A stretch of 38,350 bases of DNA from the IMG/VR virus record IMGVR_UViG_3300031951_000496, positions 1 through 38,350 of that record; one strand, written 5' to 3'. The stretch is from a virus. The notes under the pieces were generated by a model, which was not told where the DNA came from, searched no databases, and saw nothing but the letters and a program-made list of their open reading frames with translations. The position numbers were made by a program, and so were the translations under genes. Shown piece by piece: positions 4,451 through 33,955 of the stretch. The number at the start of each line of letters is the position of its first letter. The first letter of the stretch is position 1.

Positions 4451-5992
4451 TTATGGTTGTAATACAAATCCAGGAGGTAAAGCAGGCGGCTTTCCAGTTG
4501 TACTTGACGCGCCCGTTGGAGATCCTATACGCAATAATAAATTTACTTGATCTTGTAACTTTTGTCGGTCTTTTGGATCTGAAAGGTCAAGCTGCTTACC
4601 GTAGTCTGTTGATAATACTTTAGTCACGGCTTCTTCTCTAGTCATGGTGCCAGCACCTACCGACCACATTTGAGCAAAGAACTGAGGAGTAACAGGAACG
4701 CCCTGACGTTTAGCCTCTGCCTCTGCAAGCGACCACTTCTTATCAAAGTCGGTCATACGCGCTCCAATCGTGGACCGCGCAACATCTTTTTGAATCTCGC
4801 CAGAAAGCATCGTATTGGTAAGGTTTGTTATAGCGCGATCCCGGCTATCAGCCCTCTTCTCAACGCGATCTCGGGCTTTATCAATTTGCCCTTGAGTGAT
4901 ATTGGCCTTACCCATCGCGGCTTCGTTCTGCTTGAGCAACAGGTTCTGCTCGGCCAGTTGATACTCGCGCTCTGCCTTCTTAATCTCTTTAATGTCAGAC
5001 GACAGTCCTTTGAGTGCGGGTGTTGCGCCCTTGCCAATGTTTTCAAAGGCATTTGCTGAAGTGCCACTCATAATTCCAAGGCCAGCCTCGATTAACCGAT
5101 ATGCCTTTGCTTCAGAACGGTCAGCGTCCAAACCTTCTCGCTGCTTCGCAATATCTTGACCCATGCGCTTGAGCAAGCCTTCGTCGTAACCAGACTTCTG
5201 CAATAGTTCGGTTGTTTGCTTAGACGCTTCTTCAGTGGTCGGAACGAACTCATCAGGTCTCGGCCCGAAACCTAAAGCATCGGTTAGTCGTGTGGCTTGA
5301 TTAACCAAAGAACCTATGTCCATTTGACTTCGACCAGAGGGTGCAACAGGAACCTCCTCATCCATCGGAGGAGCAATACCTGTATCAGCTCCAGGCACTC
5401 CCTGCCCTTGCCGCGCAAACTTTGCAGATTCTCGATTCATGTCAGCGCTAGAAATACCTGTACCAGGAACTCCTTGGCCTTGACGCATAAACTTCGCTGC
5501 CTCTCTATCGCTGATCTGAGCAATTAACCGCTTGCGCTCATCTGGCGACGCATCAGCAATTGCCTGTCTCAAGAGTGAAGTATTAAATGACGGATCTTTT
5601 TGAACCATCATTTGTATAGCTTGCTCAAGCATCATGTCATCGCTGACAAGACCCTGGTTCTGGAATCGCTGCACCTGTCCACCATCTTCAAACGCTACGA
5701 TCCCACCACCAGCAAACTCTGGTGCCTCGATGGGGAGTTGGTCTATACCACCCTCATCCATCATCTGTTGATTCTGCGCCTGGTCCATGACCTGCTCAGC
5801 AATCGTAGGCTCCTGACCTTGTGCCATACGGGCTGCTGCGGCTGAACGCATCCGCTGCTCAAAGGCGATCTTTTCTTCCAGGAGAGGCACGCCCATGTAG
5901 GCCGGGATAGTCCCAGACTGAATGGCCTGCTGTAGCTGGGGGATGCTGAGCTTTTCTGCCGTATCCAGACGGCTAAGAGCGCTTCCGATCAT
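4451..5992 (-). CDS. Internal (ejected) virion protein with KGG-type motif
   Basis: 513 residues. The N-terminus (about 14-50) has the SIPQLQQAIQSGTIPAYMG segment that I recognise from many aquatic podovirus proteins. Residues 94-107 carry a Gly-rich signature, AGGGIVAFEDGG. Residues 163-186 and 187-208 are a tandem repeat built on KFxRQGQGVPG. The second half (250-420) is charged and helical with likely coiled coils. It starts 4 bases inside the preceding gene (ATGA), and the giant JAB protein follows. Position between a Gly/Gln-rich internal protein and a huge polyvalent protein matches the gp14/15/16 core block of T7-like phages, so an inner-core or ejection role is likely. No enzyme motif is visible. 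Confidence 0.88.
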   Translation of the reverse strand: MIGSALSRLDTAEKLSIPQLQQAIQSGTIPAYMGVPLLEEKIAFEQRMRSAAAARMAQGQEPTIAEQVMDQAQNQQMMDEGGIDQLPIEAPEFAGGGIVAFEDGGQVQRFQNQGLVSDDMMLEQAIQMMVQKDPSFNTSLLRQAIADASPDERKRLIAQISDREAAKFMRQGQGVPGTGISSADMNRESAKFARQGQGVPGADTGIAPPMDEEVPVAPSGRSQMDIGSLVNQATRLTDALGFGPRPDEFVPTTEEASKQTTELLQKSGYDEGLLKRMGQDIAKQREGLDADRSEAKAYRLIEAGLGIMSGTSANAFENIGKGATPALKGLSSDIKEIKKAEREYQLAEQNLLLKQNEAAMGKANITQGQIDKARDRVEKRADSRDRAITNLTNTMLSGEIQKDVARSTIGARMTDFDKKWSLAEAEAKRQGVPVTPQFFAQMWSVGAGTMTREEAVTKVLSTDYGKQLDLSDPKDRQKLQDQVNLLLRIGSPTGASSTTGKPPALPPGFVLQP

Positions 5993-7614: not shown

Positions 7615-8042
7615 AGTTGTACTTCCACTAAAGTAGTTCGTGGCTCAAAGCCGTACCGTTTCCATAAACGCACGATAGATTCTCTACCGTATCCCTGGAC
7701 TTTTGTCGCCCCGCGCTGCTTTAGAATCATCTTCAACTGCTCAAACGTGTCTCTGTTTGAAATCAACTTCCCGCCGATAAGAGTGATGAACGCCACTCGG
7801 GCCATCGGGTAGTTTGCAAAAGACACTGTGGCTGCGCCGTGGATTTCTCTTTGCTCATCTACAGCCACCAACAACAACCAGATACCGCTTGTTAAGAATC
7901 CTTGGACATGATGTATGTTGTAACAGTTACTCCACTCCGGCGCATCATTGTCTTTAATTAGAGCGTCGATTAAGAAATTGTCTACACGCGGCCATACCTG
8001 GGCAATGTAGTTTGTATCAACAACCTGGATAGAAAGATTCAT
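7611..8042 (-). CDS. GNAT-fold protein, T7 gp13-like internal virion protein
   Basis: 143 residues. The C-terminal half (AFITLIGGKLISNRDTF followed by GATKVQGYGRESIVRLWKRYGF) has the GNAT acetyltransferase layout: core strands, then a helix and a terminal YGFEPR strand. The T7 gp13 family (a DUF2833/GNAT-like group) has this size and lies directly before the internal core genes, as here. In T7, gp13 is needed for assembly of the inner core. A true acetyl-CoA site is not obvious, so a structural or maturation role is as likely as catalysis. It overlaps both neighbours by 4 bases. The family call is good; activity is unknown. Confidence 0.85.
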   Translation of the reverse strand: MNLSIQVVDTNYIAQVWPRVDNFLIDALIKDNDAPEWSNCYNIHHVQGFLTSGIWLLLVAVDEQREIHGAATVSFANYPMARVAFITLIGGKLISNRDTFEQLKMILKQRGATKVQGYGRESIVRLWKRYGFEPRTTLVEVQL

Positions 8043-8722
8043 TTTTTCAACAGTGAGTCAATACCTTCTTCTACGCCACCACCTTTTTTAAACCCACCTC
8101 CATCAAAACTTGGCGGAGGAGCTGCCGCCGCTGCATCTGCTGCCGTTCTAGCATCAACCTGGGTTTGTGTCATATAAGGAATAGGTCGGTACTGTGACTG
8201 CATCGGCTGCGGGGAGAGCATGGGTTGGAAACGCTGTTGCTGCATTCCACCTTGCAATCTGGACTGTGACATGGGTTCCGACAAAACACTCCTTCTTTCA
8301 CCGGCAGGCCCAAATATATCCGCAGCCGGTCTGAACATGTCCTGTTGTTGTGGCATCTGCCTTAACGCCGCTTGTCCCTGATCCGATATATCTGTAGCTG
8401 GCCCAAACATGTTTTGTCGTTGCGGTTGCTGCAACATTTGGTTACCAAACCGCTGACCGAATCCCATCATGGGAGGCTGATAAAACCCACCAAAAGGTGC
8501 TTGGCCATAACCCATCGGAGAGAACTGTGAGTAGCTCGGTTGATAGATAGGCTGATAAAACTGTTGGTTCGGACCATACGGCATATAGTTCGGCCTACGT
8601 GATGCTGTGTAGGGGTCGTATTGAGGCGAAGCCCGTGCTATGTCCATTGGGGACAATACACGCAATCCACCGAATGGACTGCCGCCAATTGCTGGCCCAA
8701 CACTTCCTGATGACTGGCCCAT
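8039..8722 (-). CDS. Pro/Gln/Met-rich low-complexity protein with C-terminal GGG-VEEGID tag
   Basis: 227 residues, mostly low complexity: Tyr/Pro/Gln-rich from 30 to 100, then degenerate QDMFRPAADIFGPAG-type repeats (QNMFGPATDI, QDMFRPAADI) around 100-140. No enzyme domain is visible. The last residues (KKGGGVEEGIDSLLKK) match the end of the internal virion protein two genes on, so both may share a partner or packaging route. A ribosome-binding site (AGGAG) lies just upstream. It follows an HNH endonuclease gene after a 37-base gap. Function is unknown; a virion component is inferred from tag and position. Confidence 0.82.
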   Translation of the reverse strand: MGQSSGSVGPAIGGSPFGGLRVLSPMDIARASPQYDPYTASRRPNYMPYGPNQQFYQPIYQPSYSQFSPMGYGQAPFGGFYQPPMMGFGQRFGNQMLQQPQRQNMFGPATDISDQGQAALRQMPQQQDMFRPAADIFGPAGERRSVLSEPMSQSRLQGGMQQQRFQPMLSPQPMQSQYRPIPYMTQTQVDARTAADAAAAAPPPSFDGGGFKKGGGVEEGIDSLLKK

Positions 8723-8734
8723 GTCTATCTCCTA

Positions 8735-8817
8735 CGCAGGAAGGTATTGTTAATGATCTTCATTTTGGGGTGTACCTATTGTTTTTTCTGAGATTTTCAA
8801 TCGCTGGAAGGTATTGT
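8735..8817. repeat. Short direct repeat at the 3' end of the HNH gene
   Basis: CGCAGGAAGGTATTGT (8735-8750) and CGCTGGAAGGTATTGT (8802-8817) match at 15 of 16 bases, 67 bases apart. The second copy codes part of the HNH motif region (LQYLPA) of the endonuclease; the first lies in the gap after its stop codon. It may mark duplicated endonuclease sequence or an old insertion junction. Confidence 0.6.
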
Positions 8818-9308
8818 AAGTTCTCAACCGTATGGAATCCAGACACATATTTGCCGCGCAATGGAAGCACGTGATCCACATGAAAACCATCTGGGCAGTT
8901 TTTGTAAAACTCAACAATAGATCTTAAGTCTGCCCATTTGGGTGTTCTTGCTCCCTTGTCTGCTACGTACTTACGCTTAAGCGCATTTCTGTGATGCGGG
9001 TTTTGCTTTCTCCACTCCCGACTTCTTAGTTTTGCAACTTCTCGTTCAGCATCGGGATTGGCAGCGTACATCTCTCTACGTTTTTGTCTAAGTTTGTCAG
9101 CATTTTTTTTATATTTATTTTTTGTTCGCAACTTTGTTGCTTCTGCATTAGCGTGATAACGTTCTTTTTCTTTTACACGACGACACTCCAAACACGTTCC
9201 GGTGCTTGTAATACGGGCGACAAGATGACCACGTTTACATGGTTTTTCTGGCATGTAAAACTTTTCGCCCTTTTGTTGGGCTTCGTAGCGTGGTCCCCTA
9301 GCACTCAT
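8760..9308 (-). CDS. HNH homing endonuclease (zinc-binding N-terminus)
   Basis: 182 residues. N-terminal C24xxxH28...C39xxC42 looks like a zinc site. The middle (45-115) is extremely Lys/Arg-rich and would bind DNA. The C-terminal HNH core is H143-V-D145-H146...N163LQYLP...EN, the form common in free-standing phage HNH endonucleases. Such enzymes cut cognate DNA lacking the gene and spread by repair. ATG overlaps the stop of the upstream virion-type gene by 4 bases (ATGA), so it is probably translated by coupling. It has no role in the virion and is best seen as a selfish insert. Active-site residues look intact. Confidence 0.92.
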   Translation of the reverse strand: MSARGPRYEAQQKGEKFYMPEKPCKRGHLVARITSTGTCLECRRVKEKERYHANAEATKLRTKNKYKKNADKLRQKRREMYAANPDAEREVAKLRSREWRKQNPHHRNALKRKYVADKGARTPKWADLRSIVEFYKNCPDGFHVDHVLPLRGKYVSGFHTVENLQYLPAIENLRKNNRYTPK

Positions 9309-10255
9309 GCTGGCAAATACTTTCGTGGGTTAATTTCTTTGCCTTGGCTCTTCCGACCGGTTCGTGCTTTACGAACTCGATCCATCATTTCATAAAGTTT
9401 TCTAGCACCCGCATCCGTCGATCCGTTACCAAGATGAGACACCACATCTGCTGGCACAACAAACTCAGAATCGGCAAGCCTGGCTGGTTGTTTTCCGCCT
9501 ATGCTGGCAGGAATGCTGTCAGACATTCCATCGCCCGGCCCTTTTAGTAGACGGCCACCATCGGAGTAAGAACCCAGATGACCACCTTTCATGTAGCGCT
9601 GTGCTACTGCGGTGTCTGCTAGACCACCACCTGCCATTGCCGTGCGATACCGGTCAGGGTTGTAGCTGAATCGACTGAGGGGACCGCTGTACTCTTCTTC
9701 TTCGGGAAGACCTGGTCTGTCATAAGACTGCCCAATCGCCGCCGTCGTTGCGCCCAAACCAGCAGGCATAAGCACGGGATTTCTAGCGTAAAAGGAATTG
9801 ATGGACGGGAAAGTAGGAGACCCTGCCGTGCCCATTTGGCTAGCACCAACATCAGACGCTAAGTTTTGAGCCATAGCAGAATCTGCTGCTACTTGAAAAC
9901 CTTGGGACGGGGCAAACGATCCCCCAGCCAACATATCTGTTCCATATCCAGCAGTAGTCGGCGCTGATAGCCCTTGACCAAGCCCCATAGTTGCTGACTG
10001 AGTAGGAGCGACACTTGCTAAATTGGCGGCTTCCGCTGCCGTTGCAACCTGCGAACCGGCGTTAACACCTGTCTGAACACCCGTGCTTGTTGCCCCGGTA
10101 GCTGCACCAGTCCCTGCTCCGGCTATTCCAGCCCCAACGCCACCACCGGCAGCGCCTAAAAGAGCACCCTTAAGCGGGTCTCCACCTGTGATTGCAGAAG
10201 TACCAGCGCCTGTTACGGCACCAATGATCATCGCCTCGCCTACGCCCGTACCCAT
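9305..10255 (-). CDS. Virion-type protein with Gly/Ala-rich hydrophobic N-terminus
   Basis: 316 residues. Residues 5-60 are a Gly/Ala-rich hydrophobic stretch with small-residue packing (GALLGAAGGGVGAGIAGAGTG), able to cross or bind a membrane. Residues 205-250 carry the MAGGGLADT, MKGGHLG and DGGRLLKGPGDGMSDSIPA segments. The C-terminal 70 residues (ARLADSEFVVPADVVSHLGNG to RKYLPA) are a signature seen in many aquatic phage genomes; I know no biochemical function for it. A strong ribosome-binding site, AGGAGG at 10266-10261, sits 5 bases before ATG. A structural or ejected role is inferred from its place between a fibre-like gene and the core block. Confidence 0.88.
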   Translation of the reverse strand: MGTGVGEAMIIGAVTGAGTSAITGGDPLKGALLGAAGGGVGAGIAGAGTGAATGATSTGVQTGVNAGSQVATAAEAANLASVAPTQSATMGLGQGLSAPTTAGYGTDMLAGGSFAPSQGFQVAADSAMAQNLASDVGASQMGTAGSPTFPSINSFYARNPVLMPAGLGATTAAIGQSYDRPGLPEEEEYSGPLSRFSYNPDRYRTAMAGGGLADTAVAQRYMKGGHLGSYSDGGRLLKGPGDGMSDSIPASIGGKQPARLADSEFVVPADVVSHLGNGSTDAGARKLYEMMDRVRKARTGRKSQGKEINPRKYLPA

Positions 10256-10310: not shown

Positions 10311-11204
10311 CTAGGCTACGGTCACCGTCGGAGCTGATCCAGAAATCACCAAAGTATCTATGCTCGGCTTGACTGTTACGTCTGGTAACGCTGATACAAA
10401 CGCAATAGATCCTATTGCCGAGGGTATTGCCGGTCTTGCAAACGGAGAAACCTGCGCTCCGTCGTGAAGCAGGAAAACCCCATCAGTGGGTGTGGTTGGG
10501 TTTCCAGCTAAATCAGTCGCCCAATACAGCTCTACTTCATCCCCAATCTGCATGGAAAATGTTATTTCTGAGTACGCCGACAGAAACCCTTCCTCACCAG
10601 GACTGGCGCTCTTACGGCCAGGAACGGTAAAGATTGTTGCTGTGTTAACTATATCTACGCCATTTACCTTTACCCATGCCGTAGCGTAGTGGATAGCATT
10701 TGCAGTGTTAATGAACTGCAATCTAAACGTGATCTTGTAGACCCCAGAAAATTCTGCGGTGGCCGAGCCTGGAGAGTTAAGCGTCCAACCGTATCCCGAA
10801 TCCAGCGTGTTCCACTTAACGACCGTAGGCGTATTGTCGCCGCCAGCAATCTGGTCTGTCGAGTCTGAGGCAGCGATATGAGGAAAGATAATCCTATGCC
10901 CATGCCCAACAAACGTCCCGCCTACAAACTGCTGCCCACTGAAATGACCGCCGTTGAAATAGCTGCCGTTAAAGACCGTACCGTTAAACGTGTTGCCAGT
11001 AAACACATCGCCAGTGTAGTCATCCCCGCTAAAGTCTCCCCCGATAAACTCATCTGCCCGGTAAGAGTTGGCCTGTTGAGGGGTAAGCGAATCCAACTGG
11101 TTGAAGTACAACCGTAAAGCATTGATTAACTGATCCATCTGCTGACGGTCATACTGCTCCCGTGGCAGAGGAAGAGCTGGGGCGCGGAATCCTATAAGGG
11201 CCAT
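10311..11204 (-). CDS. Fibre-like protein: pentapeptide-type repeats plus jelly-roll domain
   Basis: 297 residues. After a helical head (10-48), residues 53-100 are ten unbroken five-residue units of the form F/Y-x-G-x-x (F53, F58, Y63, F68, F73, F78, F83, F88, F93, F98), each with Gly two residues on. This is the spacing of a right-handed pentapeptide beta-helix, with Phe/Tyr in the usual Leu/Phe place. Residues 120-250 look like a C1q/TNF-type beta sandwich (SGVYKITFRLQFINT, IGDEVELYW). The build suits a fibre or tail appendage: attachment helix, beta-helical shaft, globular tip. It overlaps the nozzle gene stop by 1 base. Receptor or enzymatic role is unknown. Confidence 0.88.
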   Translation of the reverse strand: MALIGFRAPALPLPREQYDRQQMDQLINALRLYFNQLDSLTPQQANSYRADEFIGGDFSGDDYTGDVFTGNTFNGTVFNGSYFNGGHFSGQQFVGGTFVGHGHRIIFPHIAASDSTDQIAGGDNTPTVVKWNTLDSGYGWTLNSPGSATAEFSGVYKITFRLQFINTANAIHYATAWVKVNGVDIVNTATIFTVPGRKSASPGEEGFLSAYSEITFSMQIGDEVELYWATDLAGNPTTPTDGVFLLHDGAQVSPFARPAIPSAIGSIAFVSALPDVTVKPSIDTLVISGSAPTVTVA

Positions 11205-13423
11205 TACCGTTTGCCGTCTGGCTGCGCGTCCAACCTAGGAGCGCCGAGCTGCCACTGCACCCCAAGTCCGTCGGAACTGATCCGTATGGCCATCTGGCGT
11301 CCTCTGGTACGGATGAACACCTGTTCTGTGTACTGGTCTACCGTGGTCTGAATGACCGGCTTCTCGTTCAGAGCGTTGTTGGTAAACACCGAACCAGGGA
11401 AGTTACGGGACCGAACGCCCATAGTAACTTCAGGATCGTTGGCTGTGGAACCACTAAAGTTAATGTCTGGGATCACCCGCTTGGTCAGCATCAGCTTGTC
11501 ACCGTCATCAATGTCAAAGTCAGATGACTGGATAAATGCTTCTAGCGGCAGCGTGTTGTCATTCACCCCTACCTCATGGGTATAGAGGATGCCTGGATTC
11601 TGATCCTGATCCGTAGATACCGCCGTGGGAAAGTCTCTGGAAGATACATCGAGCCACGCCGTGCGAGTCAGGTTGCCGTAGTACCAGATCCGATCTAGGT
11701 GGTTATAGATTACATATCGGTCAACCCAGTTGGAGTTGGCGCTGCAATAGAACCACCAGACTTCGTTGTAGCCTTCGTTCGTTCCGCAGATAACCTGGTC
11801 GGCCTGGTCAAAGTTGATGTCTTTGAAGACATACTCTCTCAGTGTGCATGGCAGCGTCTGTACCCTACCATCATAGGCATAGAACTTATCCAGCCCCATC
11901 CAGTACGTCACGTTGTTCACTGAGATACAAGCCCGTGGCGACATGATGGAAATGTTGTCGGCCAGCTCCTGGAGACCAAACACCTCAATAGTGCCTAGGA
12001 ACTGGAAGCTGTACAGGTGTGTATCTGTGAAGACCACAATCTCCTGCTTGGTCGGCAGCGCCCGGACAATCCTTGATCCACGGGATACCCGAATAAACCC
12101 AGCCGAGTTTGTCAGCAAAGGCGTCCAGACGTTTGGCTGATCCTGGGTGGCCCACCGGATAAGGAGTGGGTCAAAATCACCGACAGACCCAGCGTAAGGC
12201 TGGCATCCAAAGGCAAGAAGGTGTTTATCGTTCTGTGAGACTAAAATCTGATACGCCGACTCTGGTACATCTGCCGGGGCCACACCATCTAAGGTTAGTC
12301 CAGACAAAAGAACGGCTCTAGTATTGAGAGATGACTGTGGCGTTGTAGCCGTACCGCGCACCCAATAATAAATTGGACCACCAGTAGCGAGACCTGTTCC
12401 AGTCGTAATGGCCCGGATGTTCATCACCAGGTCATTGTCAAAATTATCAAAGAACCAATCCCGCTGCGGAAGGTTTACCGGAACCGGGCTGGCCAATCCC
12501 CATCCAGTAGGAGAAGCTACAAGCTGAGCGCTATGCGTACCACTTTGACTGCCAGTTGTATTGATAGCTGCGCCAGCTTGAGTCAAAGATAAGCTGCACG
12601 TACTGCCAGTTGCCCCAACCACGTAATAGGCCACGCCAGCAGAAAGCCCAGTGGGAAGAGCGCCGGTCGTGCTTAAAAGAATAACGGTGTTATCTGCTGG
12701 AGTGTGTGACGCAAATGTCAGTACCGCTGGGGATGCGATGGTCACTGTGAATGTACCAATTGAAGACAGACCCGTTGTTCCACCGAAGCCACCTGTCCCC
12801 CATCCATAACCCGCCGTCTGCGATGCGAAACCTGGGTGGATCTGGCATCCAACAAAAATAGATGTTCCGCCACCACCCGTGACCGTAGATGTAGCCGCTG
12901 TTGATACAACAATCGTAAAGTTATTCGCGTCTGTAACAGATGTTACAGTGTGCTCACCATTCAAAACCGCACTAGGTATGCCGCCGACATCTACCGCTCC
13001 GGCAATCGTGATGTAATCCCCGACCAGGCATCCATGCGCCGTGATGTTGATATTGACTGTGGTTGAACCGTTGGTCGTATCAATGCAATTGTCGGTCGTA
13101 GGAGTCTTAAATGTGTACTCTTGATCCGGCGAAGCAAGTGGGCTACGGATCGGCGTAATGTCATAGAACAGGCCACCAACTTCGATATAGACCTTCTGGT
13201 CCGTACCAAGCGCCAGGAAGTTATCTGAGTACGAAGTAACCCAGTTCCATAGCTGCCGACACGTTCCGATGAACCGTTCGGTCGTGGCCTCTACCCAACC
13301 GCCAATCTTCTGCGGGAATCCTGAATAAAACCGAACTTTGTCGCACTCGTAATAGCCGCCCTCGTTGGCGTAGTTCGTGGTGTCACGATTGACACCAGGA
13401 CGCAGGACGATCTTTTTGAGCAT
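11204..13423 (-). CDS. Tail nozzle protein (P22 gp10 / T7 gp12-like)
   Basis: 739 residues. The N-terminus (MLKKIVLRPGVNRDTTNYAN, then YECDKVRFYSGFPQKIGGW) and the middle (YWMGLDKFYAYDGRVQTLPC, EVWWFYCS, DRIWYYGNLTRTAWLD) are a conserved set from podovirus genomes, usually placed with the beta-propeller nozzle proteins that close the short tail. The C-terminus (FIRTRGRQMAIRISSDGLGV) is also typical. Residues 115-310 contain an inserted Thr/Ser/Gly-rich beta region, probably accessory. It follows the endopeptidase gene by two bases. Family recognition is good; the fold assignment is by analogy. Confidence 0.88.
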   Translation of the reverse strand: MLKKIVLRPGVNRDTTNYANEGGYYECDKVRFYSGFPQKIGGWVEATTERFIGTCRQLWNWVTSYSDNFLALGTDQKVYIEVGGLFYDITPIRSPLASPDQEYTFKTPTTDNCIDTTNGSTTVNINITAHGCLVGDYITIAGAVDVGGIPSAVLNGEHTVTSVTDANNFTIVVSTAATSTVTGGGGTSIFVGCQIHPGFASQTAGYGWGTGGFGGTTGLSSIGTFTVTIASPAVLTFASHTPADNTVILLSTTGALPTGLSAGVAYYVVGATGSTCSLSLTQAGAAINTTGSQSGTHSAQLVASPTGWGLASPVPVNLPQRDWFFDNFDNDLVMNIRAITTGTGLATGGPIYYWVRGTATTPQSSLNTRAVLLSGLTLDGVAPADVPESAYQILVSQNDKHLLAFGCQPYAGSVGDFDPLLIRWATQDQPNVWTPLLTNSAGFIRVSRGSRIVRALPTKQEIVVFTDTHLYSFQFLGTIEVFGLQELADNISIMSPRACISVNNVTYWMGLDKFYAYDGRVQTLPCTLREYVFKDINFDQADQVICGTNEGYNEVWWFYCSANSNWVDRYVIYNHLDRIWYYGNLTRTAWLDVSSRDFPTAVSTDQDQNPGILYTHEVGVNDNTLPLEAFIQSSDFDIDDGDKLMLTKRVIPDINFSGSTANDPEVTMGVRSRNFPGSVFTNNALNEKPVIQTTVDQYTEQVFIRTRGRQMAIRISSDGLGVQWQLGAPRLDAQPDGKR
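12931..12948. repeat. Palindrome copy 3 (TGTAACA-N2-TGTTACA family)
   Basis: CTGTAACAGATGTTACAG is an 18-base palindrome with centre GA, identical over these bases to the copy at 16636-16653. It codes T-V-T-S-V-T in the inserted beta region of the nozzle protein. Confidence 0.9.
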
Positions 13424-23875: not shown

Positions 23876-24528
23876 CTAATCGGCACTCTAATCTGGCCAT
23901 TACGGTAGGCGTCTGACCGGTTCTTACCTTCGCTGAGCTGTTTCAGAACGCTCATAGCCTCGTTGTACCGGGCCGTGTAATTGGCAATCGTATCTGGCTC
24001 GCTCTTCATGAACGCCGCGGCCTCCAGCAGAGCACCGTACAGCAGCACCGAATCAAAGTTATCCCCAAGCCAGGACGTACCAGCCGTCACAATCGACTCG
24101 GGGTAATAGAAGTAGTGCAGCTCCATCGTGTAGTTAGCGTCCGGCGTCGGTCCCAGGATGAACGTGTTCTCATCCCATAGGCCGTAGTACAGCGGCTTGC
24201 CTGATGTCGTCGGATACGGATACGCCTGGCGGATGAAGTTCACATCCTTGTCCAGCAGGTACTCGTACTCGCCTGTCACGGGATCAATGACCGCCAAGGA
24301 GAAGGTAGACAGCCAATCTACGGGGGCGGACAGATACTGATTCCCACCGGTTGTTATACCAGTAGAGTTCTTCCGCAGGGCAAGAATCTGAATTGAATTG
24401 TAGATCCGCTGTTCTGCTTCTTGTACAAACGTAGCTATCTGGCTGGCAGAGGTAAACGATCCCACTGTTTCTGGGAACTCATTCTCCGCGTAGCCCTTAA
24501 TTGCAGCGGTCAATTCTGTGTAATTCAC
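23872..24528 (-). CDS. Head-tail adaptor (SU10-type)
   Basis: 218 residues, mainly helical at both ends with a beta core. The layout (NYTELTAAIKGYAENEF, FVQEAEQRIYNSI, LSAPVDWLSTFSLAV, KPLYYGLWDENTFILGPTPD, YGALLEAAAFMKSEPD) is that of the phage adaptor family described for SU10-like podoviruses, which forms a ring under the portal. An adaptor is the expected partner of the nozzle protein encoded downstream. It overlaps both neighbours by 4 bases. Good confidence in family. Confidence 0.9.
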   Translation of the reverse strand: MNYTELTAAIKGYAENEFPETVGSFTSASQIATFVQEAEQRIYNSIQILALRKNSTGITTGGNQYLSAPVDWLSTFSLAVIDPVTGEYEYLLDKDVNFIRQAYPYPTTSGKPLYYGLWDENTFILGPTPDANYTMELHYFYYPESIVTAGTSWLGDNFDSVLLYGALLEAAAFMKSEPDTIANYTARYNEAMSVLKQLSEGKNRSDAYRNGQIRVPIR

Positions 24529-24815
24529 GCCATCGGCCCTCTAGCCATTACGCCCTTGGTTGCTGCCCCGGTTCCACGGATTTTGATCCCGTCGGTCTTG
24601 ACATAGTCACGGCCAGGATCGCCAAAGCTCACACGGCCAGCCGGAGTGTTACAAGTAAAGTCCTTGGCAGACAGAGTATTGGGATCGGGAGGACGGCTGA
24701 CAGACAACTTTGCTGCCTTCTCATCGACCACAGAACCCTTCATGGTATGGGGCGTGGCATACAGCTCACCGCTGCCCACCTCTTTGCCCATCACTTTTTT
24801 GCTGAACTTAGCCAT
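24525..24815 (-). CDS. Small protein with RGTGAATKG-MARGPMA C-terminus
   Basis: 96 residues, basic. The last 24 residues (KTDGIKIRGTGAATKG followed by VMARGPMA) are a C-terminal signature I know from many phage genomes, adjacent to head-tail genes. The N-terminal part (MAKFSKKVMGKEVGSGELYA) is lysine-rich. Unknown function. Placed directly before the adaptor and after another basic small gene; a virion or DNA-associated role is inferred. Confidence 0.82.
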   Translation of the reverse strand: MAKFSKKVMGKEVGSGELYATPHTMKGSVVDEKAAKLSVSRPPDPNTLSAKDFTCNTPAGRVSFGDPGRDYVKTDGIKIRGTGAATKGVMARGPMA

Positions 24816-25438: not shown

Positions 25439-26371
25439 TTATCCGTAGTAGAACATGTTGCGCGGGACAATCCGCAGCGGAGCTGTCTCACGGTCCTCTT
25501 GGGAGGCCAGGGTCCACTGCTCTTCATAGTCCATCTTGAGCATCTGAATCCTGGTGGGGTCTACCCCTGGTAGCTTCATGCCGAGGTAATACGCCAGGCC
25601 AGCCACCATACACGGGATAAGCCTGAACGGAATGTCCTGTACCGTTGTTCCATTCCCGGCGTCTTGCATCCGGCGCAGTCTCCAGTAGACAAATGTGTAC
25701 TGGTCTCCAGGAGGATTAGGCGTCGGCCAAAGGTTTACACACGGGAGGTTCTGCACCGTGATCGGGGGTGTGCCAATGACCGCATGGCTTGTTGCCGTAG
25801 TACCGTTCTGTCCACGGGCGCAGTTGATAAGCGAGTTACCCGAGATATTGGGATAACTGATTGTCTCGTTGTTGATCTTGATAAAGCCTGCCGCAGCCAA
25901 GCCTGTAGTCGTGCTCAGCTCAATCGTCGTATCCGTGGCGTTGATATCTTGGGCCAGGGTAATGGCCGTAATGTTCTCGTTCCCAGACTGCCGGTTGAAC
26001 CAATACTGAATCGGGCGTCCCTGGGTGAGCTTGTTTGGAATTGAAGAATAGGTTGGCTCAGCAATGTTGCTGATGTTGATGTCGATCTGGTTCAGCGTAC
26101 CGGGGTTCTGCCGGATGACCGTATCAAGGATCTGGATGGTATCCGAGGGAATGGGATAGATGGCCTGGCCTGTAACCAGCGGGAACGATCCCTGCTCCAT
26201 CGTCCACAAATTCACGCCACGATTTGACCACTCTATCGTCAACAGATTTAATGACCGCCTGGCCGTCCGCAGATCGTAACCAGAACGCAGCTCACCACCG
26301 ACGCGCTCAAACGCCTCTTCAATAAGATTGGAGAGGTCTAGGTTAAACGCTACGGTACCGGAGGTAGGCAT
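25439..26371 (-). CDS. Probable head-tail adaptor/connector-region protein
   Basis: 310 residues. The N-terminal helices (NLIEEAFERVGGELRSGYDL, ARRSLNLLTIEWSNRGVNLW) and the C-terminal helices (PFRLIPCMVAGLAYYLGMKL) bracket a beta region (75-235). Residues 133-206 are a common inserted beta domain (TLAQDINATDTTIEL...CARGQNGTTATSHA). The helix-beta-helix plan is like that of the SU10-type adaptor encoded three genes on, so a second ring or stopper protein is likely. It may instead be a P22 gp4/gp26-class factor. Gene position supports the connector role. Confidence 0.86.
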   Translation of the reverse strand: MPTSGTVAFNLDLSNLIEEAFERVGGELRSGYDLRTARRSLNLLTIEWSNRGVNLWTMEQGSFPLVTGQAIYPIPSDTIQILDTVIRQNPGTLNQIDINISNIAEPTYSSIPNKLTQGRPIQYWFNRQSGNENITAITLAQDINATDTTIELSTTTGLAAAGFIKINNETISYPNISGNSLINCARGQNGTTATSHAVIGTPPITVQNLPCVNLWPTPNPPGDQYTFVYWRLRRMQDAGNGTTVQDIPFRLIPCMVAGLAYYLGMKLPGVDPTRIQMLKMDYEEQWTLASQEDRETAPLRIVPRNMFYYG

Positions 26372-26984: not shown

Positions 26985-27262
26985 TTATATCCACCCCCCT
27001 TAGCTTTGTACTGCTTAGCCAAGAGCTGTGCTTTGCGGGCTGACCACTGACCCGCAGCAGTCCCCTGAGTCGCGGAACCTTTAATCTTTTCAAAAAGGCT
27101 CTTACGCATCCCAGGCTTCGTATAAGTACCTGCCTCATTGACGCGAGACTTGACTTTGCCACCCTCTTTATACTGAGTGAAAGTGTCTCCATCTTTCCGC
27201 CTCCCGGTTTTGGCAGTTGGCATTTTGGACGCCCGGACAGCGCCCATCCCACGGCTAGGCAT
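26981..27262 (-). CDS. DUF5872-like basic protein
   Basis: 93 residues from ATG at 27262, chosen because it overlaps the HNH stop (TGATG) and has a GGAGGT site 8 bases upstream; an ATG at 27280 has no such site. The core (KEGGKVKSRVNEAGTYTKPG, then MRKSLFEKIKG...AGQWSARKAQLLAKQYKAKG) matches what I remember as DUF5872 from cyanophage genomes. It is Lys-rich with a terminal Gly-Gly-Gly-Tyr-Lys. No function known. Confidence 0.85.
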   Translation of the reverse strand: MPSRGMGAVRASKMPTAKTGRRKDGDTFTQYKEGGKVKSRVNEAGTYTKPGMRKSLFEKIKGSATQGTAAGQWSARKAQLLAKQYKAKGGGYK

Positions 27263-27726
27263 CAATTTACACCTCCACATCTCACATTGTTGACTATTCT
27301 ACTAACATGAGATTGCCGAACACCATATCTTTTTGCTAGCTGTGATTGACTAAACATCGAAGCAAAATATAGCCCTCTAATTTCTTTTACCTGAGAATTG
27401 CAAAGTTTTGCCATACCATTTGTTTGTCCATGCAACTTTGGTGCTTTGCTGCGACCTTTTTGAACTCTATCTTTTATGTTGTCCAAATTTGTTCCAACAA
27501 ATAAATGACTTGGGTTGCAACATTTTGGATTGTCGCATGAGTGCAAAACATGCAAAGGTGTAGACAAAGAATCTATAAGCCCAGATAAAAAAGCTGCAAC
27601 TCTGTGAGCATATGTACTTTTGGAGCCCGCATTAAACCAACCGTATCCTTTCCGGCTCAATGCGTTTTTCCACTCCCAACATCCGTCATTGGAAGTGTTT
27701 ACTTTGCTCCAAAACCTATCTTGCAT
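27262..27726 (-). CDS. HNH homing endonuclease with C-terminal helix-turn-helix
   Basis: 154 residues. It has the NUMOD4-free HNH_3 layout: WEWKNALSRKGYGWFN (17-32), A40-H41-RVAA, H62-S-C64-DNPKC69-C70-NPSH74-LFVGTNLDNIKDR. H41, H62 and H74 would bind metal and DNA, and C64/C69/C70 a structural zinc. Residues 108-147 (NSQVKEIRGLY...SQSQLAKRYGVRQSHVSRIV) form a helix-turn-helix. This is the common phage-borne selfish endonuclease. It abuts the KGG gene start (TAA-ATG) and its stop overlaps the next ATG. It likely spread by homing. Confidence 0.93.
   Translation of the reverse strand: MQDRFWSKVNTSNDGCWEWKNALSRKGYGWFNAGSKSTYAHRVAAFLSGLIDSLSTPLHVLHSCDNPKCCNPSHLFVGTNLDNIKDRVQKGRSKAPKLHGQTNGMAKLCNSQVKEIRGLYFASMFSQSQLAKRYGVRQSHVSRIVNNVRCGGVN
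27271..27276 (-). promoter_or_regulatory. Ribosome-binding site embedded in the HNH gene's last codons
   Basis: GGAGGT, 8 bases before the ATG at 27262 of the DUF5872-like gene, coded by Gly-Gly near the C-terminus of the HNH protein (RCGGVN). Confidence 0.7.
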
Positions 27727-27960
27727 TTAGCACTTCCCGCCGCCGCGCTTCATAGCCATACCGCCTTTGGCCATCTTGCCCTTGCCATCAGCAGCAAACG
27801 CCGGGACTTTCTTCCCGCCCTTCACAACCATCGGCATACCACCAGCGGCCATCTTGACCATCTTGCCTTTGGTAGCGCCTTTTTTGATAACGCCATCAGG
27901 TTTGCTAGAGGTTTTGACAGCGCCCATTTTGGTAGCGCCCATACCAGTCATCTTTTTCAT
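27727..27960 (-). CDS. Lys/Met/Gly-rich protein with KGG repeats
   Basis: 77 residues. It is almost wholly Lys, Met, Gly and Ala. Repeated cores are KPDGVIKKGATKGKMVKMAA (20-39; degenerate copy of the neighbours' C-terminal tag, here internal), KGGKK, KGGMAMK and a final GGGKC. No domain. It starts 4 bases inside the upstream gene stop. Likely a virion or nucleic-acid-associated micro-protein; function unknown. Confidence 0.8.
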   Translation of the reverse strand: MKKMTGMGATKMGAVKTSSKPDGVIKKGATKGKMVKMAAGGMPMVVKGGKKVPAFAADGKGKMAKGGMAMKRGGGKC

Positions 27961-28196
27961 ACCATTTTCCCTTTCGTCTTACCACGGACTGCACACCCAT
28001 CAGCACGTTTAGATGCTGATGACACTTTTCCGCCTTTTTTCATTCCTGCCTGTTGCCGCTTTTTTTCTTCGTCACGATCTTCAATGTCTTCGGCCATTAC
28101 ATTTCCAACGACACCAAAACCACGAAGTAAATCTGGGTTCTTTGCAAGAATTGCGGGGCCAATCCCGAGCGCACCACTTTTGAGAGCGTCCCTCAT
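27957..28196 (-). CDS. Small protein with ADGCAVRGKTKGKMV C-terminal tag
   Basis: 79 residues from ATG at 28196, 2 bases after the previous stop (TAACC-ATG). An ATG at 28238 would overlap by 40 bases and is less likely. The body (MRDALKSGALGIGPAILAKN) has a mildly hydrophobic helix, then an acidic helix, then KRADGCAVRGKTKGKMV at the end. The tag repeats in two upstream neighbours. Unknown function. Confidence 0.8.
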   Translation of the reverse strand: MRDALKSGALGIGPAILAKNPDLLRGFGVVGNVMAEDIEDRDEEKKRQQAGMKKGGKVSSASKRADGCAVRGKTKGKMV

Positions 28197-28198
28197 GG

Positions 28199-28444
28199 TT
28201 ACACCATCTTCCCGCGAGTTTTGCCACGCTGAGCGCAACCATCGGCAGAACGCACATAACCGCCCTTGGCCTTTTTAATCGGCTTACTGTATTCCTCTTC
28301 CTGGGTGTAGCCCATACGATCAGCTAATTCACTAGCCTTCGTCGTAGCGTATTTGACACCCTTTTTGATGCCTAAGAAGTCATCTTCAATCTTTGCTTCT
28401 TTGATCTTCTTGGTGCGGGTAGAGTCTTTGCGTTCCTGTTCCAT
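28199..28444 (-). CDS. Small charged protein with ADGCAQRGKTRGKMV C-terminal tag
   Basis: 81 residues, Lys/Glu-rich helices in the first 60, then KKAKGGYVRSADGCAQRGKT and RGKMV. ATG follows the previous stop directly (TAA-ATG). The C-terminal 16 residues are near-identical to those in flanking genes, while codons differ, so the tag is kept at protein level. Function unknown. Confidence 0.82.
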   Translation of the reverse strand: MEQERKDSTRTKKIKEAKIEDDFLGIKKGVKYATTKASELADRMGYTQEEEYSKPIKKAKGGYVRSADGCAQRGKTRGKMV

Positions 28445-29092
28445 TTAGATAATCCTTCCACGGGTTTTGCCGCGCTGAGCAATACCGTCTGCGCGTTTAG
28501 ATGCGACCATGCCACCTTTCTTCATACCACCAGCCTGCTCGCGCATCCTGGTTCTAAATGCTTCAGCCTTGCGAGCAAGACGCTCAGAACCTGTCTGAGT
28601 ATCTTCTTTCTTGCGGGCCTGTTCTTTCATGTATGCAGCACGTTCTTTCTGCATATCTGCTGCGCGTTTAGCGGCTGCTGTAGCGTCCTTGCCTTGCTCG
28701 TATGCTCTACGCTCATCACGGATATTGGAGGCCGTCAGAGCGGATTCCATGCGGTCTATGTCCTGTCCGCTTGGACCCATGGATTTTGGTGCTGCCGGAG
28801 CTGCTGCAGAACCACGACGGGTCAGACCACGCTGAGCATTGAGATAGTCACGCAGGTTATCAAACCCGGCAGACTTCATCTGCTCTTTGGTGACAATCGG
28901 AGCTTTGGCTGTATTAGCAGGAGTCTTAGTGCGCTCTACAAACTGGCGAATGCTTTCGGTAGCACCTGGCTCATCACTCATTTGGCTACGGCTATAGTCC
29001 ATCGCTTCACGCTTGGACGCAGCCATAAGATTCTTAGCGTCATCGGACTCTAAGTATCCGCCGTTCTCATACCGTTTGACTTTGCGTTTCAT
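28445..29092 (-). CDS. Lys/Arg/Ala-rich protein with ADGIAQRGKTRGRII C-terminal tag
   Basis: 215 residues. The largest member of the tagged group, mostly charged helix with coiled-coil potential (125-190: RRAYEQGKDATAAAKRAADM...). It ends MKKGGMVASKRADGIAQRGK then TRGRII. The N-terminus (MKRKVKRYENGGYLESDDAK) is also basic with a Gly-Gly. It overlaps the previous stop by 4 bases. Possibly a scaffold, core or DNA-binding protein; no family with known function recognised. Confidence 0.84.
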   Translation of the reverse strand: MKRKVKRYENGGYLESDDAKNLMAASKREAMDYSRSQMSDEPGATESIRQFVERTKTPANTAKAPIVTKEQMKSAGFDNLRDYLNAQRGLTRRGSAAAPAAPKSMGPSGQDIDRMESALTASNIRDERRAYEQGKDATAAAKRAADMQKERAAYMKEQARKKEDTQTGSERLARKAEAFRTRMREQAGGMKKGGMVASKRADGIAQRGKTRGRII

Positions 29093-29337: not shown

Positions 29338-29631
29338 TTAGCACTTCCACCTTTTTCTCGCTTGCCGAATACGGCTGTTGGGATCTTTGGCGGCTTCTGG
29401 AAACTGCTTCATCTGTCCAGCCGACCGTGCACAAAATGATTTGCGGCGCTTTGCCCGTTCTCCAGTAGGCTTATCCTCTGTTACGGCAGTCTTGAGCTTT
29501 GACCCTGGATTGGCACGGCGATACGCTGCCACGCCTTTATCTGTCATACCAGCGCCCTGCTTAGTCGGACGAAAGTTGCCCGACTTCACAGAGGTCTTGA
29601 TGCCCATGCCCTTAGCCATGATTATGCCCAA
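29338..29631 (-). CDS. Small basic protein, DUF6321-like
   Basis: 97 residues. The core TDKGVAAYRRANPGSKLKTAV, then RRKSFCARSAGQMKQF and the terminal RKRWKC, is what I recall as DUF6321 from cyanophage and algal-virus genomes. Cys in SFCAR and the terminal Cys could bind metal. An in-frame Met at residue 5 is another start. It overlaps the preceding gene by 10 bases. Function unknown. Confidence 0.83.
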   Translation of the reverse strand: MGIIMAKGMGIKTSVKSGNFRPTKQGAGMTDKGVAAYRRANPGSKLKTAVTEDKPTGERAKRRKSFCARSAGQMKQFPEAAKDPNSRIRQARKRWKC

Positions 29632-31782: not shown

Positions 31783-32372
31783 TAGGCAATCGTACTTACC
31801 ATGATGTAGTACGTAGTGCCGTTATCACTGATCACAGGGATCGTGTGGGTAGCAGCCGGAGTTCCAGCGGCAGCACGGAAGACCGTACCAGCAGAAGGAG
31901 CAGGAACGCGCAACAGAGCGCTAACAGTTCCAGTTCCGCTATTCGTACAACGCAGGTAAGTAGCACCAGACCAAGAGCCGCCCGAAGCAAAATCAGAGTC
32001 CAGTTGGATTGCAGAAATCGTACCGCCAGGAGCAGTAGAAGATCCACCGAGAGTTACGCGCAGAGCATTACCGGCACCAGAGATCGTTCCAGATCCATTA
32101 ATGGACAGGGAGATATGAGCACCGTTGACTGTGCCGCCAGTAGCAGCGCCAGCACCAGTTACGCGGGTAAGAAAACGAGCTGTCTCACCAGAACCGGTAG
32201 AGGTAAAGGTCAGACGGGAATAGTTCAGTCGTACATCACCGGTCGTATTTGATGCGGTAACGTAAGAAGAAGAAACGTTGGAAGTAGAGGTAACCGCAAT
32301 TTCATCAGTAGCGGTGCCGGAGATAAACCCGTTATCCGAGGCGACTGGGCCAGAAAATCGTGTTTGAGCCAT
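31782..32372 (-). CDS. Virion-type beta-rich protein after GIY-YIG insert
   Basis: 196 residues, Thr/Ser/Gly-rich, beta-rich throughout (MAQTRFSGPVASDNGFISGT, then LTFTSTGSGETARFLTRV, GNALRVTLGG, GTTYYIMVSTIA). The leader MAQTRFSGPVASDNG is a common marine phage structural signature. It sits next to the capsid gene, apart from the endonuclease insert. ATG overlaps the endonuclease stop (TAATG), and the ribosome-binding site lies in that gene. Likely a decoration or fibre-base protein. Confidence 0.86.
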   Translation of the reverse strand: MAQTRFSGPVASDNGFISGTATDEIAVTSTSNVSSSYVTASNTTGDVRLNYSRLTFTSTGSGETARFLTRVTGAGAATGGTVNGAHISLSINGSGTISGAGNALRVTLGGSSTAPGGTISAIQLDSDFASGGSWSGATYLRCTNSGTGTVSALLRVPAPSAGTVFRAAAGTPAATHTIPVISDNGTTYYIMVSTIA

Positions 32373-32962
32373 TATAAAACTCCTTTAAGGTGTTGATACT
32401 TTAACGCAAGACGCCTTACAGAGCTAGTATCGGAACCCAATCGTCTAGCACGTTCTGCGTAAGACATATGATCATTCTCAAGCACAAACTTCAGTTTATC
32501 AATAAATTTTGGGTCCGAGTGAAAACGTGCCATTTGCGCCTTTGAAAGTGTTTGCCTGTACTCTGAGCTTTTGTAATCAAACGTCGTAGCTCTTCTTCCA
32601 AGTCGAATGCGTTTTTTTACCTCTTCACTATGCGTCTTGCCTCTCATTGGAGCTTTTGCAAAGTCCGCTATGTTGTAAACGGTTGGCTCATCAAACCACG
32701 CATCTCCACATAAAAACGCATTTTCTAAATGGTCAAGTTCATCTAAGTTGTTGCACTCCACTTCTATAGCACCATAAAAATTTTTCGCGCCGTACTTGTT
32801 GTACGCATTCTGTAGATGGGGGTTTGTGTGCTTGTTCCATCTCAGCAACCGGAAATGTTCTTTGATTCTTTTTTTAACTCTTTGCGATTGCCCTACATAG
32901 CACTGGCCTGTGACCTTGTTAACCAACTTGTAAATTCCGCACACATCAATTTTGTATGGCAT
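32372..32962 (-). CDS. GIY-YIG homing endonuclease with NUMOD3
   Basis: 196 residues. G9-I-Y11 with YVG at 22-24, R32 in QRVKKRIKEH and E80 in DHLENAF give the GIY-YIG catalytic set. Residues 105-119 (PMRGKTHSEEVKKRI) are a NUMOD3 DNA-binding motif, repeated in weaker form later. The C-terminus (MSYAERARRLGSDTSSVRRL) is a helix-turn-helix. It lies between the capsid terminator and a structural gene, so it is a free-standing homing gene. A GGAG site is 7 bases upstream of ATG. The active site looks intact. Confidence 0.94.
   Translation of the reverse strand: MPYKIDVCGIYKLVNKVTGQCYVGQSQRVKKRIKEHFRLLRWNKHTNPHLQNAYNKYGAKNFYGAIEVECNNLDELDHLENAFLCGDAWFDEPTVYNIADFAKAPMRGKTHSEEVKKRIRLGRRATTFDYKSSEYRQTLSKAQMARFHSDPKFIDKLKFVLENDHMSYAERARRLGSDTSSVRRLALKYQHLKGVL
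32380..32384 (-). promoter_or_regulatory. Ribosome-binding site embedded in the GIY-YIG gene's last codons
   Basis: AGGAG, 7 bases before the ATG at 32372, coded within the last codons of the endonuclease (KGVL-stop). Confidence 0.7.
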
Positions 32963-33049: not shown

Positions 33050-33955
33050 TTATCCCTGCGAACCGTACATGCCCAAGGGATCCGAGAATCCAAAGGAATA
33101 ACGCTCACGACTCTTGTAACGAACGTTACCAGTGTCGAAGTCACCGTCCATCGAGTTCTGCAACGGTACGCGCACAAAGTGCTTCATACCATTAGGAACG
33201 TCAGTGGTCAGGAACCAGGCGTTGGTGTCCGTCAAGAAGTTGTTAACGGTATACCCTTCAGGGATAGAACCGTTATTCTTGATGGCGTTGATGTCGTTGT
33301 CCGCCGTACCAACACGCAGCTCAGTCTCAAGGAGACGGGTAGCCACGAACTGGAGGGCAGGAGGAACGACGAGCTTCTTGGGCTTGGCTGCAATCAGCAG
33401 TCCGCGCTCATCCGTCCATGCAGCGATCTGGATCACTGCGTTCTCAAGAGAGGTCTCGTTGAGATCGGTAGGAGTCGTGGGGATGTTGCTGTTTGTGCCA
33501 CCAGAAACCAAGGGGTGTGCGTTCGAGAACAAAGGTTGACCGTCGCCACCAGCAAAGGCAGAGTCAAATCCATTGTTCAGAACCGCAGCGGCCTTAATCT
33601 GCTTGGTGTAAGCCATAGCACGGGCCAGGGCTTTGGTGTAACGAGCAGACAGGCTGTCGTACAGGTTGTCCTCGATGGCCTCTTCGGTCAGCGAGAAACC
33701 CAAAGCAATGGTTTCGTGGTTATAGCGAGCAGACCATGCTTCCTGGGCGTTGTCATAAGCGATGGCAGAACCTTCGTTCTTAACCGGCGCTGCTGAGAAG
33801 CCAGAGAGCTTGGTTTCCTCTTCAAACGAACGCTCGGAAGTCTCAGTTTCGTAGATTTCCTTGTGCTGTTCGCCGTAACGAGCATACTCCAGACCAAACA
33901 AAGCGTTCAGGCCAGGGAGAAGCTCTTTCAGTAGTTGTGCGCGTGAAATAGCCAT
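33050..33955 (-). CDS. Major capsid protein (Mu gpT-like)
   Basis: 301 residues. The N-terminus MAISRAQLLKELLPGLNALFG, then LEYARYGEQHKEIYETETSE, and middle signatures (AYDNAQEAWSARYNHETIAL, SARYTKALARAMAYTKQIKA, LFSNAHPLVSGGTNSN) match the Mu gpT major head subunit family with an HK97 fold. It forms the icosahedral shell and needs the scaffold and probably the co-chaperonin encoded upstream. A strong AAGGAG site lies before ATG, and the terminator after its stop is expected for a highly made product. Confidence 0.95.
   Translation of the reverse strand: MAISRAQLLKELLPGLNALFGLEYARYGEQHKEIYETETSERSFEEETKLSGFSAAPVKNEGSAIAYDNAQEAWSARYNHETIALGFSLTEEAIEDNLYDSLSARYTKALARAMAYTKQIKAAAVLNNGFDSAFAGGDGQPLFSNAHPLVSGGTNSNIPTTPTDLNETSLENAVIQIAAWTDERGLLIAAKPKKLVVPPALQFVATRLLETELRVGTADNDINAIKNNGSIPEGYTVNNFLTDTNAWFLTTDVPNGMKHFVRVPLQNSMDGDFDTGNVRYKSRERYSFGFSDPLGMYGSQG

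What the first reader, a model, noticed from the sequence alone, without database searches (positions are those of the whole stretch)
27727..29092. Shared C-terminal tag ADGxAQRGKTRGKMV in four consecutive genes
Genes ending at 28445, 28199 and 27957 finish with near-identical 15-16 residue tags, and the one at 27727 has an internal degenerate copy (PDGVIKKGATKGKMV). Codons differ between copies, so amino acids, not DNA, are kept. Bodies are unrelated. A common tag on unrelated bodies suggests a targeting, packaging or protease-recognition signal.
Basis: partly seen in the sequence, partly recalled or inferred. Interest (0 to 1): 0.65.

Follow-up and report, generated by a model that had tools for sequence, protein, structure and literature searches.

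The report
Shared tail-end tag on phage proteins
A large group of mostly uncultured freshwater phages puts the same 15-residue tag on the ends of several otherwise unrelated small proteins encoded next to the head-and-tail genes, which looks like an address label, probably for loading proteins into the virus particle, though that function is not yet shown.

Summary
Three consecutive genes end in ADG(I/C)A(Q/V)RGKT(R/K)G(K/R)(M/I)(V/I), and the fourth carries a degenerate internal copy. Scanning viral contigs mainly with the motif alone gave 340 loci with 855 tagged ORFs; 336 of 340 sit beside the same head/adaptor genes. In loci holding both genes, 328 of 346 tagged ORFs lie between major capsid protein and adaptor on the same strand. 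Selection is on the protein: the commonest peptide has 39 DNA encodings in 41 copies. Among 716 pairs of tagged bodies sharing a contig, none is alignable. The tag is therefore not recent duplication, although it is confined to one capsid-protein clade, present in 28 of 32 contigs chosen without reference to it. It is modular: DUF6321 occurs with and without it, and some copies are internal or N-terminal. A cultured genome carries it (Planktothrix phage Pag-Yong1; identical protein in MinM2 and Pra-JY27), so it can be tested. Best explanation (confidence about 0.45): a virion-sorting tag that works like T4's capsid-targeting sequence, placed at the other end of the protein, on hypervariable cargo. 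Packaging, receptor and cleavage are not shown. I found no description of the tag in Pfam, PHROGs or held papers.

The parts
28445..29092 (-). Tagged gene 1 (215 aa): N-terminal MKRKVKRYxxGG, predicted helical body, C-terminal tag
   Evidence: ORF list; ten relatives in viral contigs share both ends; AlphaFold model with pTM 0.19 and pLDDT under 50 over residues 190-215, i.e. the tag
28448..28492 (-). Tag copy 1, ADGIAQRGKTRGRII, directly before the stop
28199..28444 (-). Tagged gene 2 (81 aa)
   Evidence: ORF list; cluster of 21 tagged relatives at 70% coverage; no Pfam or PHROG match
28202..28246 (-). Tag copy 2, ADGCAQRGKTRGKMV, directly before the stop
27957..28196 (-). Tagged gene 3 (79 aa from the ATG at 28196)
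   Evidence: ORF list and sequence; no Pfam or PHROG match
27960..28004 (-). Tag copy 3, ADGCAVRGKTKGKMV, directly before the stop
27727..27960 (-). Gene 4 (77 aa), GG-rich, ends GGGKC, with internal degenerate copy of the tag; resembles class II proteins elsewhere (motif, then a short tail with MxxGG and a C-terminal Cys)
27856..27900 (-). Degenerate internal tag copy, PDGVIKKGATKGKMV
29338..29619 (-). DUF6321 gene, untagged here but tagged in a cluster of 22 related proteins: the modular control
   Evidence: Pfam E 1.3e-14; tagged and untagged forms
33050..33955 (-). Major capsid protein, upstream limit of the tag cluster
   Evidence: PHROG major head protein E 4e-26; annotated relatives
25439..26371 (-). 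Head-tail adaptor, downstream limit of the tag cluster
   Evidence: relatives annotated adaptor or tail adaptor

Best explanation
This is a clade-specific, protein-level recognition tag, usually C-terminal, carried by 1-6 small late proteins per locus with fast-changing, mostly disordered bodies. Shown: the tag, its conservation as protein, its fixed genomic setting, body diversity and modular gain or loss. Inferred: during head assembly the tag (consensus KGG-x-V...SAS-K-R-A-D-G-I/C-A-x-R-G-K-T-K/R-G-K/R-M/I-V/C-stop) is bound by one shared head component such as scaffold, capsid inner face or portal/adaptor, which brings unrelated cargo proteins into the virion, from which some may be delivered into the host with the DNA. 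It would work like the T4 capsid-targeting sequence but at the opposite end of the protein. The receptor and any cleavage are unknown.
For: Fixed place: 336 of 340 tag loci have head or adaptor-region genes, and 328 of 346 tagged ORFs lie between capsid protein and adaptor on the same strand. Near-universal in the clade: 28 of 32 contigs picked by capsid protein. Peptide-level selection: same-codon rate 0.44 within and 0.41 between contigs against about 0.37 expected; 39 encodings in 41 copies. Unrelated bodies: 0 of 716 same-contig pairs alignable. Modularity: DUF6321 with and without tag. Low hydrophobic content of bodies and no predicted structure at the tag fit a docking peptide. Class II tagged proteins start with a module shared with PHROG families annotated virion structural protein, and one tagged body matches part of a 2564-aa phage protein annotated endolysin. 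Known precedent for short targeting sequences on divergent internal head proteins: T4 CTS (PMC9026906).
Against: No proteomic or cryo-EM evidence that any tagged protein is in a particle. PHROG annotations are inherited names. Sister phages with the same capsid protein lack the tag, so it is not required for this head in general. No co-occurring receptor gene could be singled out.
Confidence: 0.45

Rival explanations
1. Anchor for accessory structural proteins: the tag fastens small proteins to the outside of the head or to the portal/adaptor as assembly or decoration factors; nothing is loaded inside or injected.
For: Gene position between capsid protein and adaptor; small size; virion structural protein labels for the shared SKKQHxFM module.
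Against: Decoration and neck proteins normally have conserved folded bodies, whereas these bodies are low in hydrophobic residues and change from phage to phage.
Confidence: 0.22
2. Nucleic-acid binding tail: the basic tag binds packaged DNA or RNA, and the proteins condense or neutralise the genome.
For: Four to five Arg/Lys in 15 residues and slightly basic bodies.
Against: An acidic residue and small residues (A-D-G, G, T, G) are kept at fixed spacing rather than charge alone, which fits a specific binding partner better; that tag set was selected with a pattern fixing some of these positions.
Confidence: 0.15
3. No common binding role for a detachable tag: all tagged genes descend from one ancestor whose body evolves very fast, and the tag is simply the slowest part of one family.
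For: One clade, one locus, and shared N-terminal pattern MxxKxxRxxxGG in many tagged proteins.
Against: The tag occurs on DUF6321 and on proteins with the SKKQHxFM module, both found far more often untagged, and at N-terminal positions; no same-contig pair is alignable. Even if true, the tag would still need a function to be conserved.
Confidence: 0.1
4. Protease or degradation signal: the tag is cut by a maturation protease or recognised by a host protease such as ClpXP.
For: 571 copies have exactly three residues between GKT(K/R)G and the stop; the basic-then-hydrophobic end loosely resembles one class of ClpX C-motif (own knowledge, not tested).
Against: Internal and N-terminal copies; terminal residues vary (V, C, I, L, R, Y); no prohead protease was recognised among the head genes scanned.
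Confidence: 0.08

Closest known systems
T4 capsid-targeting sequence (CTS) of internal proteins IPI, IPII, IPIII (PMC9026906)
   Same: Short conserved peptide on small, basic, divergent late proteins; [quoted passage not shown] variable cargo.
   Different: T4's is N-terminal, 10-19 residues, and is removed by protease gp21; here it is mostly C-terminal, unrelated in sequence, and neither packaging nor cleavage is shown.
Encapsulin cargo-loading peptides (own knowledge)
   Same: Short C-terminal peptide on unrelated cargo, bound by an HK97-fold shell.
   Different: Different sequence; phage rather than cellular compartment; binding to the shell not tested here.
DUF6321 (PF19846) and SKKQHxFM-type proteins (phrog_16759, phrog_22033, phrog_25121)
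   Same: Known domains or modules that form the body, or part of it, in some tagged proteins.
   Different: These families are defined by the body and mostly lack the tag; no library entry was found for the tag itself.

Membership tests
T4-type capsid-targeting sequence | Short conserved peptide shared by otherwise divergent proteins | tested here: met
   855 tagged ORFs, 358-443 body clusters, 0 of 716 same-contig pairs alignable
T4-type capsid-targeting sequence | N-terminal position | tested here: not met
   571 copies end three residues after the motif; N-terminal copies are a minority
T4-type capsid-targeting sequence | Targets its protein into the prohead | not testable with these tools
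   needs virion proteomics or reporter packaging
T4-type capsid-targeting sequence | Removed by a prohead protease | not testable with these tools
   no protease recognised among the window head genes scanned, which does not prove absence
Encapsulin cargo-loading peptide | C-terminal peptide bound by the shell's inner face | not testable with these tools
   position fits in most copies; binding not testable
Family of recent gene duplicates | Bodies of neighbouring copies align | tested here: not met
   0 of 716 same-contig pairs at E below 1e-4, complexity filter on
DNA repeat or recombination site | Nucleotide conservation beyond that needed for the peptide | tested here: not met
   same-codon 0.44/0.41 against about 0.37 expected; 39 encodings in 41 copies
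C-terminal degron (ssrA-like) | Motif required at the free C-terminus | tested here: not met
   internal and N-terminal copies exist
Known family in Pfam or PHROGs | Profile match covering the tag | tested here: inconclusive
   No match for the window's tagged genes in Pfam and none below E 0.44 in PHROGs; the stretches shown for other tagged proteins lie in bodies; per-member positions were not shown for the 106-protein scans

The most novel reading that the evidence does not exclude
A dedicated C-terminal cargo code: one phage clade loads a rapidly changing set of unrelated, partly effector-like proteins into its particles by a single recognition tag and delivers them with the genome, so that new cargo needs only to acquire the tag.
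Probability: 0.33. Interest if true: 0.85.

Novelty: new variant of a known kind. Interest (0 to 1): 0.62.

Why it matters
Most proteins of uncultured phages have no assigned role. If this tag marks virion cargo, several hundred unannotated proteins gain a testable role at once, and the tag becomes a handle for finding more cargo and for studying how proteins are loaded into a phage head. It would also extend the T4 targeting principle to an unrelated, widespread freshwater phage group that has a cultured representative.

Tried and rejected
tblastn of the 31-aa tag against cultured phages gave nothing, possibly because of low-complexity masking; I found the cultured copy by reading the capsid-adaptor interval of relatives instead. 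Recent duplication was rejected, as was a DNA repeat. I looked for a partner gene present only with the tag and found none that discriminates, with only four tag-lacking contigs to compare. I suspected an ADP-ribosyltransferase-like domain in seven tagged proteins by eye, but the model was weak (mean pLDDT 45) and the fold search gave nothing at E 0.001 or better, so I do not claim it. The species-genome scan gave five hits: L146 is a phage contig binned with a gammaproteobacterium and carries the head genes; L149 and L150 look like chance; L147 showed no matching open frame in my check; L148 ends in a genuine-looking tag on what is probably a chimeric contig. A first attempt to draw the capsid tree failed on group labels and was redone with fewer rows. 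Paper searches for the tag, for the phage names and for the DUF names found nothing relevant.

Full report
Observation. The three genes ending at 28445, 28199 and 27957 (minus strand) finish with ADGIAQRGKTRGRII, ADGCAQRGKTRGKMV and ADGCAVRGKTKGKMV, each directly before a stop codon; the gene at 27727 holds PDGVIKKGATKGKMV internally. Of all 28,203 pairs of C-terminal 15-mers in the window, the three tag pairs share 13, 11 and 9 residues and no other pair more than 6. The bodies do not align to each other.

Setting. The window is a virus record. From the right it encodes portal, GroES, a protein in the scaffold position with an acidic start, two unknown proteins, major capsid protein, a GIY-YIG type gene, several small genes, DUF6321, the tagged genes, an HNH type gene, three conserved small basic proteins, the head-tail adaptor, and further left a nozzle at 11204-13423. 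Names of the scaffold and endonucleases rest on position or on reading the sequence. Relatives of the capsid protein include Planktothrix phage Pag-Yong1 (71% identity), Pelagibacter phages HTVC023P and HTVC027P, phage DSL-LC04 and Roseobacter phages CRP-901/902.

How widespread. These loci, together with the 15 found by protein similarity to gene 1 and a few others, give 855 tagged ORFs in 340 loci; a few loci may repeat a contig fetched twice. The same pattern in 257 billion bases of bacterial and archaeal genomes gave five hits: L146 is a phage contig of this kind, L148 ends in a real-looking tag, L149 and L150 look like chance, and L147 showed no matching open frame in my check. In the viral loci 571 copies end exactly three residues after GKT(K/R)G. 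A second class has a short tail after the motif, often with MxxGG and a cysteine near the end. A third class puts the motif at the N-terminus of a small protein downstream of the adaptor.

Where it sits. 336 of 340 tag loci have at least one of the window's head or adaptor-region genes. In the 128 loci holding both capsid protein and adaptor, 328 of 346 tagged ORFs lie between them on the same strand. Starting from the capsid protein instead, 28 of 32 contigs with at least 4.5 kb downstream carry the tag, all 61 tag matches downstream on the same strand. At least three of the four negatives hold a degenerate relic such as DGIAEKGKTKGKNV or GIEIKGKTKGKMI. That set is biased to capsid proteins at least 84% identical to the query. 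In a capsid-protein tree all tag-bearing contigs and Pag-Yong1 fall in one supported clade (98/99), with the marine and DSL-LC04 relatives outside it; four untagged tips lie inside the clade. I set the Pag-Yong1 label to tagged by hand, because its variant DGCAKRGRTKGRFI falls below my profile cut-off.

What is conserved. In the 166 distinct tags used to build the profile, positions -14 A, -13 D, -12 G, -7 G, -5 T and -3 G are invariant, -10 is A in 160 and -6 is K in 165. Since that set was selected with patterns fixing several of these positions, this overstates invariance; later loci show variants such as GDG, KGHTKG and RGKTRA. At the DNA level there is almost no extra conservation: same-codon use at identical residues is 0.44 within and 0.41 between contigs against about 0.37 expected, and ADGIAQRGKTRGKMC has 39 encodings in 41 copies. 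Selection therefore acts on the peptide.

Bodies. 798 bodies fall into 358 clusters at 50% mutual coverage and 443 at 70%. Among 716 pairs in the same contig none matches at E below 1e-4 with the low-complexity filter on, which lowers sensitivity for such bodies. Bodies are low in hydrophobic residues (median 0.148 against 0.283 for ORFs over 250 aa) and slightly basic. An alignment of 106 tagged proteins keeps only the ends: MxxKxxRxxxGG at the start and KKGGxV...SASxRADGIAQRGKTRGKM at the finish. AlphaFold gives gene 1 a helical body with no overall fold (pTM 0.19) and leaves the tag unstructured.

Modularity. DUF6321 is untagged in the window and in the four untagged contigs, and tagged in a cluster of 22 proteins. 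Several class II proteins start with an SKKQHxFM module shared with PHROG families annotated virion structural protein. One tagged body matches the C-terminal part of a 2564-aa phage protein annotated endolysin (E 3.5e-4). Seven tagged proteins share a folded-looking domain whose function I could not establish.

Reading. A strictly conserved, apparently unstructured peptide on unrelated proteins encoded beside the capsid gene is best explained as a docking tag for one common partner in virion assembly. The nearest known system is T4, where a short N-terminal sequence carries divergent internal proteins, and by fusion also foreign proteins, into the head; Alt, an ADP-ribosyltransferase, is also carried there and ejected (PMC9026906). 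I give the packaging reading 0.45, an outside or neck anchor 0.22, nucleic-acid binding 0.15, pure ancestry 0.10 and protease or degron 0.08. None is demonstrated. Pag-Yong1 carries one tagged protein (UMO75986.1); an identical protein is present in MinM2 and Pra-JY27, whose records have the same length, so a direct virion test is possible.

Limits. No proteomic data were available; the host of the window phage is unknown; viral scans were capped; body comparison was by BLAST only; and the four untagged contigs are too few to search for a partner gene.

Noticed in passing
window 24525-24815 (-): A second C-terminal motif, TDGIKIRGTGAATKGVMARGPMA: 245 ORFs in 240 loci end with RGxG(A/C)Ax(K/R)G and up to 12 more residues, nearly always one per locus; 213 are homologs of this gene, and a few of the other 32 are in fact RADG-type tags. 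Untagged relative HTVC023P has two proteins ending in similar RGxGAAxRG motifs.
   Followed up: partly
window 4451-5992, 8039-8722, 9305-10255 (-); Pag-Yong1 OL906435: An aromatic-or-Met xxGG(x)hydrophobic motif, also found just before the tag, recurs in other late proteins; in Pag-Yong1 8 matches in 9357 late residues and none in 8536 early residues.
   Followed up: partly
OL906435, OQ594354, PP438419: Three records of exactly 65,014 bases with an identical tagged protein, listed from Planktothrix, Synechococcus and Planktothricoides; likely the same phage.
   Followed up: no
window 25439-26371 (-), residues about 130-200: The head-tail adaptor carries an inserted domain resembling stretches of baseplate wedge and tail fibre proteins; the adaptor of L364 lacks it and that of L421 has a similar insert.
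   Followed up: no
window 32372-32962, 27262-27726, 8760-9308 (-): Three probable homing-type endonuclease genes (GIY-YIG and HNH-like by reading the sequence) are scattered among the structural genes.
   Followed up: no
L148 (JALRCL010000652.1) 162-2132 (-): A Patulibacter MAG contig has a membrane acyltransferase-like ORF that ends in a complete tag (MKRYAKGGNVSASKRADGCAQRGKTKGRMI) at the contig edge; probably a chimeric assembly.
   Followed up: no
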